Of a DNA stretch of 64,000 nt, positions 27,733-31,337 are shown piece by piece. Position 1 is the stretch's first letter, and each line of letters begins with the position of its first letter. Source of the DNA: Cognatundibacterium oligocarboniphilum (lineage in GTDB: Bacteria; Pseudomonadota; Gammaproteobacteria; Burkholderiales; Burkholderiaceae_D); assembly GCF_013377855.1 (NCBI RefSeq), contig NZ_JABXYJ010000001.1:454964-518963 (forward strand), in the 5' to 3' direction. Made by a program: the position numbers and the translations under genes. The notes under the pieces were generated by a model that saw only the letters and a program-made list of their open reading frames with translations, was not told the origin of the DNA and made no database searches.

Positions 27733-29088
27733 ATGTCATCATTTAGCGAACTCGGTTTGTCCGAGGATATTGTTCGCGCAGTCAGCGAACAGGGTTATAT
27801 CTCCCCCACCCCAATCCAGCAACAGGCAATTCCTGCCGTCATTCGTGGCGGAGATTTATTGGCTGGAGCACAAACCGGAACCGGCAAAACAGCGGGTTTT
27901 ACACTGCCTATCCTGCAGCGTTTAGCCAGCACTACCACATCCAAGGACAAAGTTACCCGACGCGTCATTCGCGTTCTGGTGTTGACGCCTACCAGGGAGC
28001 TGGCGGCACAGGTACAGGAAAATATTGCTTTGTACAGTAAATATCTGCCGCTGAATTCCGGTGTCATATTTGGCGGTGTCGGAATTAATCCGCAGATCAA
28101 ATTATTAAAACATGGCGTGGATATTCTGGTCGCCACTCCAGGACGTTTGCTGGATCATCATCAGCAAGGTACCATTGATTTGCGTCATATTGAAATACTG
28201 GTGCTGGATGAAGCTGACCGTATGCTCGATATGGGTTTCATTCACGACATCAAGAAAATTCTCGCCATTCTGCCGACCAAACGCCAGAATCTGTTATTTT
28301 CCGCAACGTTCTCCGATGACATCAAAGCACTGGCAGATCGCTTATTAAACAATCCTGCGATGATCGAGGTTGCCCGACGCAATTCAACGGTGGAAGTGAT
28401 CGGACAGAAAATTCATCCAGTGGACAGGGACAAAAAACATCCGCTGCTGGCCTACCTGATCAAAACACACCAATGGTCCCAGGTATTGGTATTTACCCGG
28501 ACCAAGCACGGTGCCAATAAGCTGGTAGAGCAATTGGGTAAAGATGGCATTGGCGCCATGGCAATCCATGGGAATAAAAGTCAGTCAGCCCGCACCAAGG
28601 CACTCACTGAATTCAAGGACGGCAGCCTGCCTGTATTGGTCGCCACAGACATTGCGGCACGCGGCATTGACATTGATCAGTTACCGCACGTTGTGAATTA
28701 TGACCTGCCGAATGTACCGGAAGACTATGTCCATCGCATAGGTCGCACTGGCCGTGCGGGCTCCACCGGAGAAGCGGTATCCTTGGTATGTGTTGATGAA
28801 TTTAAATTGCTTGCCGATATTGAAAAATTCATCAAACGCCAGATTCCGAAAGAAATTGTCGATGGATTTATTCCGGATCCAAACGCCAAAGCTCAACCAA
28901 TACAACTCCGCAGTTTTGAAGGACGCCCACCTTCTTCAGGTAAACGTCCGCCACGAGCACAATCCGGAAACAAACCCGCACAACTGGCAGCCAACAAGAC
29001 GCATACTGGAAATCCTCGTCAAGGCACTAATCGGCAGTCCATGAAACCAGCCCTGACTCATCGCTCAGGAAGTCGGGGGCAAGGCTGA
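27733..29088 (+). CDS. rhlE: DEAD-box RNA helicase, RhlE family
   Basis: A 451-residue ATP-dependent RNA helicase. It has the Q motif ([14 protein letters not shown]), Walker A AQTGTGKT (residues 46-53), PTRELAAQV, the DEAD box (159-162), [19 protein letters not shown] and [10 protein letters not shown]. The C-terminal tail after about residue 385 is basic and rich in Gly, Gln, Arg and Pro, typical of RhlE RNA-binding extensions. It remodels structured RNA during ribosome assembly or RNA decay. A terminator follows. Confidence 0.93.
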
Positions 29089-29140: not shown

Positions 29141-29169
29141 AAAAGCCCTTAAGTCATCAAGGGTTTTTC
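29141..29169 (+). terminator. Rho-independent terminator after rhlE
   Basis: AAAAGCCCTT pairs with AAGGGTTTTT (one G-U pair) around an 8-base loop, ending in a T-run. Confidence 0.75.
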
Positions 29170-29227: not shown

Positions 29228-29455
29228 TTACCAACTTGCCTTGGACAAAATAATCAGCCATTTTTTCAATACCAACATTTCCAGGTGACCAGCCTGAACA
29301 CCTGTAGAGCAATCCAGAATAGGATTAACTCGATACGCTCGCTGGCGAAAATCTCGGCAGACAAACATTTCTCGACGGCCAAGGCGCACTAAAAAAGACC
29401 TGGGGGAAAACTGAAGACTAAAGCGGGTATCGAAAGATTGTTCAAGGTATGCCAT
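29228..29455 (-). CDS. Small protein of unknown function under a LexA-type operator
   Basis: A 75-residue frame beginning MAYLEQSFDTRFSLQF and ending LKKWLIILSKASW. AGGAGA at 29463-29468 lies seven bases before the ATG, an excellent ribosome binding site, and a strong LexA-like palindrome with an overlapping promoter lies about 65-100 bases upstream, so the frame is probably real. It is basic (many Arg), with two Cys and a short hydrophobic C-terminal segment (MLVLKKWLIIL); there is no signal peptide. I do not recognise the family. By position it could be an SOS-induced checkpoint or DNA-damage accessory protein, but that is inference from the promoter only. Confidence 0.6.
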   Translation of the reverse strand: MAYLEQSFDTRFSLQFSPRSFLVRLGRREMFVCRDFRQRAYRVNPILDCSTGVQAGHLEMLVLKKWLIILSKASW

Positions 29456-29513
29456 TTTAAAATCTCCTAGTCAGGTATCAAGGTACTTCATTTAATATGC
29501 ATTTGATGAGAGT

Positions 29514-29553
29514 ACTTTAACACAAAATACTGTACATACAATCAGTATTTTGT
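29514..29553 (-). promoter_or_regulatory. LexA-type operator overlapping a promoter
   Basis: Two perfect 11-bp arms, ACAAAATACTG (29522-29532) and CAGTATTTTGT (29543-29553), surround the spacer TACATACAAT. The core is CTG-N10-CAG within TACTGT-N8-TCAGTA, one base from the ideal E. coli SOS box. On the minus strand a -35 TTGTAT (29541-29536) and -10 TAAAGT (29519-29514) are 16 bases apart, so a bound repressor would cover the -35. The next gene on that strand is the 75-residue frame starting at 29455. Confidence 0.7.
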
Positions 29554-29591: not shown

Positions 29592-31262
29592 TCAATTATT
29601 GAAAATCGAAACCTCTCCAGATTGCTTTATCAATTGAAAAGCGGAGGCATACTTTTTTTGGTAAAAGTCAGATAAATCATCTGATAAAACAAGTAAAGAT
29701 ATTTTGGAAGTCCTAGTCAATTCAATAAATTCGGCATCATCTATAACAATCTGATTTTGATGTAATTTATTTCCCCAGAATAAATCACTGCTGCGACTAT
29801 CAATAATTTGAACGGTTTTTTTTAAATAAAATGGAAGCGAAGATTGTTGCTCAAAAAAACGATATGTAAATACGTTTCTTTCAGGAAAATCTCTCACCAG
29901 AATTTGAGAAAGCACTTTTGTTGAAATCGAATTGCCTCGAGCAATTACAGTTTCCAATAACAGTGGCAAACATACAGCCGGGATTAATAAGTAGCTGACA
30001 AATCTCGCCCCAGAAGCACGGATTGACATCAGAGATACGATTAATGTCGTTATCAAGAGAATCAATGTCGCATAAAGCGCAAATTTTTTAAGCGGCAATC
30101 CAAGTATTATCCACTCAGGAAGAGTGGTATTCCCCACCAGCCACCATAAAGCAAAGACAGAGACACATGCAATTAAAACTCCAGGTATTGCCAACACCCA
30201 ACGCCGCACAAATTGCATCTCGTCCAATATAAAAGCCATTTGGAGAACTGCAAATGGCATGATAGTCACCAGATAATAATTTGCCTTCGCACTCGACACA
30301 GAAAAAAACAATAACGGCATGAGCCATGCAACAAAGAGAAATAACTGGAATTTCTCATTCAACATTATCTTAAGTCGCCGCACAAGCAACAGAGGTAAGA
30401 AGAAAGACCATGGAAATAAAAACAGAAGTGCCCGTGGCAAGTAATACCACCAAGTCCCGGCATAATAATCGTGCGGTTCCCGCTTACCCAGAAAACGTAA
30501 AATATGTTCGTTGATGAAATAAAACCAGGTAAAAATAGGCTCTGCGATCATGGCTGCAATATGCCATGGGGCAGCAATCAGCAGGAAGAGCAATACAGCT
30601 TTCCAATAAAACCAGGCACGAATCTTTGTAAAAAAATCTCTTACCGAAACTGATCGCAATGCGATATAGGAAAACATAACAATCGCAAACAATATCAACG
30701 CAACAAAGCCTTTCGCCAATAACGCGAATGCCAACATAACCATAGACTGATGATGCGCCCGTCTGTCGTTGTATTCAACAAAAAGGTAACCATTCATCAG
30801 GGCAGCAGCGAGAAAAAAAGTCAGCAACATATCGAACATTAAAGTTCTCGACATGAGCGTCACCCCCAAAGAACTGACGAACATAAGCGCTGCCAGGCGG
30901 CCAGCTTCAAATCGCTGCAAACGTGTGGAAAACCATAAAATCAGACCGACACAGCCAAGTGCAGATAGCGCCGGCACCAGTCTGACAACCCACTCCTGTT
31001 CTCCGAAAATGACGAAGAAAAGTGCTGTCAGCCAATACAGCAAGGGGGGCTTCTCCATGTAGGCAAGACCATTCAGATGGGGGATGGCCCAACCTTTCCA
31101 GTTGGTTGCCAGCAACATTTCTCTCGGAATTTCTGAATAAAGACCTTCATTATTATTCAGAACAGGATACGCACCCAATCGATATCCGACAAAATAGATG
31201 GCGGCGATCCAAACCAGCCACAAAGGAATAGCTGGAAGTTGTGCGATATGTCGTTGTTGCAT
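29592..31262 (-). CDS. ArnT-like (PMT/GT83 family) membrane glycosyltransferase
   Basis: A membrane protein of about 556 residues with 11-13 predicted helices. The first periplasmic loop carries NNEGLYSEIPREMLLATNWK and MEKPPLLYWLTALFF, the conserved catalytic-loop motifs of ArnT and related transferases that use polyprenyl-phosphate sugars; the length also matches ArnT (about 550). ArnT adds Ara4N to lipid A at the periplasmic face. The arnD fragment at the window start suggests the pathway exists, but this gene is about 29 kb away and alone, so another lipid-linked sugar is possible. I chose ATG 31262 over the open frame to 31334; it has no clear ribosome binding site. Confidence 0.8.
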   Translation of the reverse strand: MQQRHIAQLPAIPLWLVWIAAIYFVGYRLGAYPVLNNNEGLYSEIPREMLLATNWKGWAIPHLNGLAYMEKPPLLYWLTALFFVIFGEQEWVVRLVPALSALGCVGLILWFSTRLQRFEAGRLAALMFVSSLGVTLMSRTLMFDMLLTFFLAAALMNGYLFVEYNDRRAHHQSMVMLAFALLAKGFVALILFAIVMFSYIALRSVSVRDFFTKIRAWFYWKAVLLFLLIAAPWHIAAMIAEPIFTWFYFINEHILRFLGKREPHDYYAGTWWYYLPRALLFLFPWSFFLPLLLVRRLKIMLNEKFQLFLFVAWLMPLLFFSVSSAKANYYLVTIMPFAVLQMAFILDEMQFVRRWVLAIPGVLIACVSVFALWWLVGNTTLPEWIILGLPLKKFALYATLILLITTLIVSLMSIRASGARFVSYLLIPAVCLPLLLETVIARGNSISTKVLSQILVRDFPERNVFTYRFFEQQSSLPFYLKKTVQIIDSRSSDLFWGNKLHQNQIVIDDAEFIELTRTSKISLLVLSDDLSDFYQKKYASAFQLIKQSGEVSIFNN

Positions 31263-31290
31263 TTGAGTATTTTTTTGATAAAAACATATA

Positions 31291-31326
31291 AAAAAACGGC
31301 AAGCAATCACTGCTTGCCGTTTTTTT
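31291..31326. terminator. Strong terminator closing the motility operon
   Basis: AAAACGGCAAGCA pairs with TGCTTGCCGTTTT around ATCAC. There are A-runs before and T-runs after, so it works on both strands; the minus strand is relevant, ending the che operon before the ArnT-like gene. Confidence 0.9.
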
Positions 31327-31337
31327 CGGAGCATTAT

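What the first reader, a model, noticed from the sequence alone, without database searches (positions are those of the whole stretch)
29228..29553. SOS-type (LexA) operator driving an unrecognised 75-residue gene
The sequence shows a near-perfect palindrome with 11-bp arms around CTG-N10-CAG, within one base of the ideal SOS box, overlapping a -35/-10 pair with 16-bp spacing and leading to a frame with AGGAGA seven bases before its ATG. LexA boxes in the E. coli style are known to be used in beta- and gammaproteobacteria. The protein is small, basic, with a hydrophobic C-terminal segment, and I recognise no family. A small SOS-induced protein could be a division inhibitor or toxin-like regulator; that role is inference only.
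Basis: partly seen in the sequence, partly recalled or inferred. Interest (0 to 1): 0.75.

Follow-up and report, generated by a model that had tools for sequence, protein, structure and literature searches.

The report
Undescribed DNA-damage-response gene of Oxalobacteraceae
A small bacterial gene that the protein-family databases we searched do not recognise sits behind what looks like the switch of the DNA-damage (SOS) response in much of one bacterial family, which points to an overlooked member of that emergency programme, perhaps a missing brake on cell division.

Summary
A perfect 11-bp inverted repeat around CTG-N10-CAG (29522-29553) lies upstream of a 75-codon frame (29228-29455, minus strand). 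The frame is a real gene: 34 of 36 same-genus genomes encode it, in-genus dN/dS is 0.02-0.30, median 0.085, and 212 of 294 family genomes match (two of these are fragments). No convincing relative was found outside the family.

Of 82 distinct copies fetched, 81 have a LexA-type box of at least 14/20 within 240 bp upstream; downstream 0, inside 0. In 69 an extended -10 follows the box on the gene's side only. The genome's lexA and recA carry the same box. In 21 copies, all of this genus, the gene is divergent from imuA; 26 family genomes have it without an imuA match.

No Pfam, NCBIfam, PHROG, PADLOC or PDB match. Best reading: a family-specific LexA-repressed SOS gene. Its action is unproven: a soluble division checkpoint is my first guess (about 0.35), a DdrR-like mutagenesis or SOS regulator second (about 0.3).

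The parts
29228..29455 (-). 75-codon gene, ATG to TAA; conserved, basic (pI 10.2), no known family
29522..29553 (.). perfect inverted repeat, 11-bp arms, 10 bp between; LexA-type operator, core TACTGTACATACAATCAGTA at 29528-29547
   Evidence: conserved in relatives
29536..29541 (-). -35-like TTGTAT inside the operator (3 of 6 to TTGACA; weak)
   Evidence: read; not listed by the scan
29514..29522 (-). extended -10 TGTTAAAGT just downstream of the operator core
   Evidence: read; TGnTAnnnT 5-8 nt after CAG in 69 of 82 copies
29463..29468 (-). ribosome-binding site AGGAGA, 7 nt before ATG
   Evidence: read; similar sites are visible in relatives (not counted)
29146..29163 (-). terminator-like stem-loop downstream of the gene, between it and the convergent helicase-like gene
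   Evidence: 1 found, 0.5 expected in shuffles: weak

Best explanation
The gene is a single-gene SOS unit. Shown by comparison: a LexA-type operator over the -35 region, an extended -10 right behind it, and a conserved protein. Inferred from established SOS biology: LexA sits on the operator and shuts the promoter; DNA damage makes RecA filaments, LexA cleaves itself, and the small basic protein is made; when damage is repaired LexA shuts it again. Inferred with much less support: the protein is a cytosolic effector that delays cell division while DNA is repaired, in a family where no SulA distinct from ImuA was found (my probability about 0.35). The stated confidence is for the LexA-controlled-gene part.
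For: Box of >=14/20 within 240 bp upstream in 81 of 82 distinct copies; 0 of 82 downstream, 0 of 82 inside (at >=12 inside gives 6), 0.1 of 82 in Markov-shuffled upstream DNA. Leaving out the 21 loci beside imuA, whose boxes might serve imuA, it is 60 of 61. The best-scoring box lies 43 to 218 nt before the ATG. The extended -10 lies on the gene's side of a box in 69 of 82 (27 of 36 in the genus, 42 of 46 outside) and never on the other side. Own lexA has two boxes and recA one of the same kind. Gene in 34 of 36 genus genomes and 212 of 294 family genomes. In-genus dN/dS 0.017-0.299, median 0.085, over 202 usable pairs of 28 copies (176 pairs saturated); variable sites by codon position 48, 29, 74 of 75 each. 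In 21 of 82 loci it is divergent from imuA; the cassette imuA-imuB-dnaE2 was confirmed in one of them. In a 1.7-Mb genome (G520) the copy has an internal stop and no CTG-N10-CAG within 300 bp, though lexA is kept. For a division role: PF03846 (SulA) matched 23 of 294 family genomes, and all 26 of its places lie inside places of the ImuA profile A3 listed; the four rows of A3 are ImuA by NCBIfam (NF033429). SOS division inhibitors of other lineages are unrelated small proteins (PMC4211646, PMC6851548, passages).
Against: No expression or LexA-binding data. The window's box has CTGA in place of CTGT on one side, unlike lexA and recA. For the division role: most comparators in the passages read are membrane proteins, this one is not; no division gene was noticed beside it in the 16 neighbourhoods printed (read by eye, no family search); 82 of 294 family genomes show no match, and of 21 gene-less ones tested 15 have a canonical LexA, so they manage without it. 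A diverged SulA could be missed by PF03846, which rang in E. coli alone of 14 controls. The copies are related, so 81 of 82 is not 81 independent events.
Confidence: 0.88

Rival explanations
1. The gene is LexA-controlled, but its product tunes SOS mutagenesis or the SOS circuit itself (a partner of ImuA/ImuB, UmuDC, RecA or LexA), in the way Acinetobacter DdrR assists UmuDAb.
For: Divergent from imuA, with LexA-type boxes in the shared intergenic region, in 21 of 82 loci. Gene and imuA co-occur more than expected over 294 family genomes (184 both, 26 gene only, 48 imuA only, 36 neither; Fisher p 5e-8, not corrected for kinship). DdrR is 78-81 aa, genus-specific, and always divergent from umuDAb (PMC7273328, passages). 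Of 13 gene-bearing genomes tested all have a LexA over the TIGR00498 cut-off, of 21 gene-less ones 15 do (Fisher p 0.06).
Against: Not obligatory: 26 family genomes have the gene without an imuA match at E<=1e-12, the window's own among them; in the other 22 genera no imuA was found within the DNA held around the gene, often 1.5 kb. No DdrR sequence was compared; no PDB chain matches our profile A2.
Confidence: 0.3
2. A basic nucleic-acid-binding or nuclease-inhibiting repair protein under LexA.
For: pI 9.7-10.4 in the four copies computed; conserved arginines R24, R28, R39 besides E29, D35, Y41.
Against: No match to any family; no structure could be made.
Confidence: 0.15
3. An SOS-induced membrane toxin of the TisB/HokE type.
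For: Small and apparently SOS-controlled.
Against: No hydrophobic stretch long enough (best 19-residue means 0.93-1.07 in four copies); conserved sequence with one match in nearly every genome that has it. An antisense RNA partner was not looked for.
Confidence: 0.04
4. Chance palindrome in front of a chance open frame.
For: The pattern alone is no rarer in the genome than its reversed control (4 against 5).
Against: Frame and box are conserved together over 23 genera under codon constraint.
Confidence: 0.01

Closest known systems
DdrR of Acinetobacter (PMC7273328, abstract and passages)
   Same: About 80 residues, restricted to one lineage, controlled by DNA damage, divergent from a gene of the mutagenesis response.
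   Different: Acinetobacter lacks LexA and uses UmuDAb; ddrR is always beside umuDAb, ours is beside imuA only in part of one genus. No sequence comparison was made.
SulA (PF03846) of E. coli
   Same: Works-like comparison only: cytosolic, LexA-controlled division inhibitor.
   Different: Our protein has no match to it. The only PF03846 places found in 294 family genomes fall on ImuA; ImuA itself matches the SulA models weakly.
SidA (29 aa) of Caulobacter and SosA (77 aa) of Staphylococcus (PMC4211646, PMC6851548, passages)
   Same: Short, lineage-specific, SOS-induced.
   Different: Both are membrane proteins; ours has no membrane segment by hydropathy.
imuA-imuB-dnaE2 mutagenesis cassette
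   Same: Same kind of box; shared intergenic region in 21 of 82 loci.
   Different: The small gene is not part of the cassette: opposite strand, elsewhere in other genera, present in 26 genomes without an imuA match.

Membership tests
LexA (SOS) regulon, CTG-N10-CAG type | CTGT-N8-ACAG-like palindrome at the promoter | tested here: met
   one mismatch (CTGA on one side)
LexA (SOS) regulon, CTG-N10-CAG type | same kind of box at lexA and recA of the genome | tested here: met
LexA (SOS) regulon, CTG-N10-CAG type | box conserved at orthologues | tested here: met
   81 of 82 copies; 60 of 61 without the imuA-side loci
LexA (SOS) regulon, CTG-N10-CAG type | LexA binding and damage induction | not testable with these tools
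   needs experiment
SulA division inhibitor (PF03846) | sequence match to the family | tested here: not met
   no Pfam or NCBIfam match to SulA
DdrR-type corepressor | sequence relationship to DdrR | not tested
   no DdrR sequence was held; the PDB profile search was empty
DdrR-type corepressor | always divergent from its partner gene | tested here: not met
   imuA found beside 21 of 82 loci
Membrane-bound SOS division inhibitors (SidA, DidA, YneA, SosA) | one transmembrane segment | tested here: not met
   best 19-residue hydropathy 0.93-1.07 in four copies
Phage or plasmid SOS genes | relatives in phages or plasmids | tested here: not met
   none in viral contigs with A1, plasmids or phages with the window protein

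The most novel reading that the evidence does not exclude
A new protein family that is the SOS division checkpoint of Oxalobacteraceae: a soluble, non-SulA inhibitor, gained early in the family, that sits beside imuA-imuB-dnaE2 in part of one genus and couples mutagenic repair to division.
Probability: 0.25. Interest if true: 0.8.

Novelty: new variant of a known kind. Interest (0 to 1): 0.6.

Why it matters
SOS regulons are among the best-charted bacterial programmes, yet here is a gene with a nearly constant LexA-type operator in copies from 23 genera that Pfam, NCBIfam, PHROGs and PADLOC do not know. In this family no SulA distinct from ImuA was found, so how its members hold division during DNA damage is open, and this gene makes the question testable with one deletion and one expression strain.

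Tried and rejected
Chance frame or palindrome: rejected. Phage or plasmid origin: no match. Relatives outside the family: an order-wide sample of 399 genomes gave two weak short matches with A1 (E 0.0018, 0.008) and thirteen with A2 at E 0.009-0.1, short and partly through stops; taken as chance. Two family matches (G448, G495) are also short and were dropped where stated. SulA replacement by exclusion: PF03846 matches first looked anti-correlated with the gene (3 overlaps of 23 after dropping G448), but they are a subset of ImuA, and the full ImuA search shows positive co-occurrence. Conserved operon partner: none noticed in the 16 printed neighbourhoods (by eye) apart from imuA in this genus. 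Cys or PilZ-like motifs: not conserved by eye. One search was a faulty pass that ignored the strand of loci; one search replaced it. One search included one unaligned row (L100; ratio 0.62, and a pairwise maximum of 1.9 in its all-pairs line); one search replaced it. One search's listing was truncated; one search replaced it. In one search one of ten loci (L166) was printed in a wrong frame; the other nine read as ImuA-like, and all ten show a CTG-N10-CAG box near the chosen start. One search tested the -10 at one fixed offset (26 of 82; other offsets 29 of 1722) and was replaced, whose pattern was chosen after seeing the sequences. The hydrophobic-moment script hints at beta strands (windows starting at 2-12, 16-19, 47-59); too weak to use. 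Literature: ten searches of the open-licence library. Searches returned no paper; two, eleven and one, seen as listings only and none naming this gene there. Subscription papers are not covered.

Full report
Observation. The gene lies alone: upstream on the same strand is a gene with PMT domains (29592-31334), downstream a convergent gene that reads as a DEAD-box helicase (27733-29088; name recalled from its sequence), with a weak terminator-like hairpin between.

Names. The genomes of the whole-genome tool are unnamed. Named relatives are three Undibacterium species (83-93% identical) and three Noviherbaspirillum species (64-70%), both genera of Oxalobacteraceae. Contig lengths tie G029 to U. 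griseum and G001 to U. curvum in the window's genus, and G501 to N. aridicola in its family. I therefore call the genus Undibacterium and the tool's family f1 Oxalobacteraceae; its borders may differ from NCBI's.

The gene is real. A protein search found it in 34 of 36 genomes of the genus and in none of 24 from other families; the two without are drafts 89% and 70% complete. With profile A1 (29 rows), 212 of 294 family genomes and 25 of 44 genera match at E<=0.01. Two of these (G448, G495), the only matches of their genera, are short fragments, leaving 210 genomes and 23 genera; among the 210 one (G520) has an internal stop. The search looks closely only at the best candidates of a loose first look, so diverged copies may be missed. 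In the order-wide sample 12 of the 13 family genomes listed matched, and 2 of the rest, weakly; the broader profile A2 (58 of 82 copies) found nothing better. In-genus dN/dS is 0.017-0.299, median 0.085, over 202 usable pairs of 28 copies (176 saturated), and variable sites by codon position are 48, 29 and 74 of 75. In a tree of 60 of 82 copies, 8 of the 12 genera with several rows form one group; g177, g191, g27 and g169 do not (few columns, many open forks). That fits mainly vertical inheritance without proving it.

The operator is real. I fetched 82 distinct copies, 36 of the genus and 46 of 22 other genera (G520, the fragments and one spurious second frame were dropped before the count). 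Of these, 81 have CTG-N10-CAG with at least 14 of 20 consensus positions within 240 bp upstream, 76 at least 15, 62 at least 16. Downstream gives 0 at every threshold; inside gives 6 at 12, 1 at 13 and 0 from 14; Markov-shuffled upstream DNA gives 0.1 at 14. Without the 21 loci beside imuA it is 60 of 61. A stricter flank rule gave 80 of 82, and 14 of 82 have two boxes within 24 bp, as the own lexA does. The copy without a box (L125) is the second, strongly diverged copy of a g169 genome. An extended -10 (TGnTAnnnT) follows a box by 5-8 nt in 69 of 82, on the gene's side only (0 of 82 on the other), so the box overlaps this gene's promoter.

The regulon context. The own genome has a canonical LexA (98.8 bits to PF01726; 236 bits to TIGR00498) with boxes CTGTATAAAAATACAG and CTGTCTATACGTACAG, and recA with CTGTTTTTTTATACAG. 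Another box (AACTGTATATACATTCAGTA) stands just before a UmuD-like gene.

Neighbour. In 21 of 82 loci, all of the genus, an imuA gene lies divergently upstream; 61 loci did not show it, though many hold only about 1.5 kb upstream. In G014 the cassette is imuA (NF033429, 222 bits), imuB (IMS domain) and dnaE2 (error-prone polymerase); two more loci show genes of like size and order. The window's genome has no imuA match. Over 294 family genomes: both 184, gene only 26, imuA only 48, neither 36 (kinship not corrected).

What it does. Nothing in sequence space names it; stray matches have E 0.035 or worse. It is basic and without a membrane segment. Invariant in A2 are G26, R28, G52, G56; nearly so M1, R24, E29, D35, R39, Y41, P45, W66, L67. 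The candidates are a division checkpoint (all 26 PF03846 places in 294 family genomes fall on ImuA), a mutagenesis or SOS-circuit regulator like DdrR, or a nucleic-acid-binding repair protein. I rank them 0.35, 0.3 and 0.15; the rest is unknown. These are judgements, not results.

Against. 82 of 294 family genomes show no match, and of 21 gene-less genomes tested 15 have a LexA over the cut-off, so the function is dispensable or covered otherwise. No induction data exist here. The single pattern is not rare in the genome. The paper library holds open-licence papers only.

Noticed in passing
G000:C1:27564-27583 (L069): A LexA-type box (TACTGTACATAAACACAGTA) stands 67 nt before a 634-aa frame that looks like a DNA adenine methylase fusion (name recalled, not tested); an SOS-controlled modification or defence gene would be worth a look.
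   Followed up: no
G000:C29:70114-70133 (L065): Box TACTGTATAAAATATCGGTA 99 nt before a 165-aa frame that I do not recognise; another candidate SOS gene.
   Followed up: no
L122, L123, L124, L119, L125 (genus g169): Three g169 genomes (G529, G515, G477) carry a second, diverged copy with its own box 68-71 nt before the start; G498 has only the diverged kind, boxed; G441 has a second copy (L125) without a box.
   Followed up: partly
G437, G439, G446, G457, G458, G459: These gene-less genomes have only LexA-like proteins below the TIGR00498 cut-off; in G437 and G457 one lies about 200 bp from imuA, a different LexA lineage in the same family.
   Followed up: partly
L025, L026, L030-L035, L086, L091 upstream regions: These in-genus copies have two CTG-N10-CAG sites exactly 41 bp apart, unlike the 17-22 bp tandems of other genera and of lexA.
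   Followed up: no
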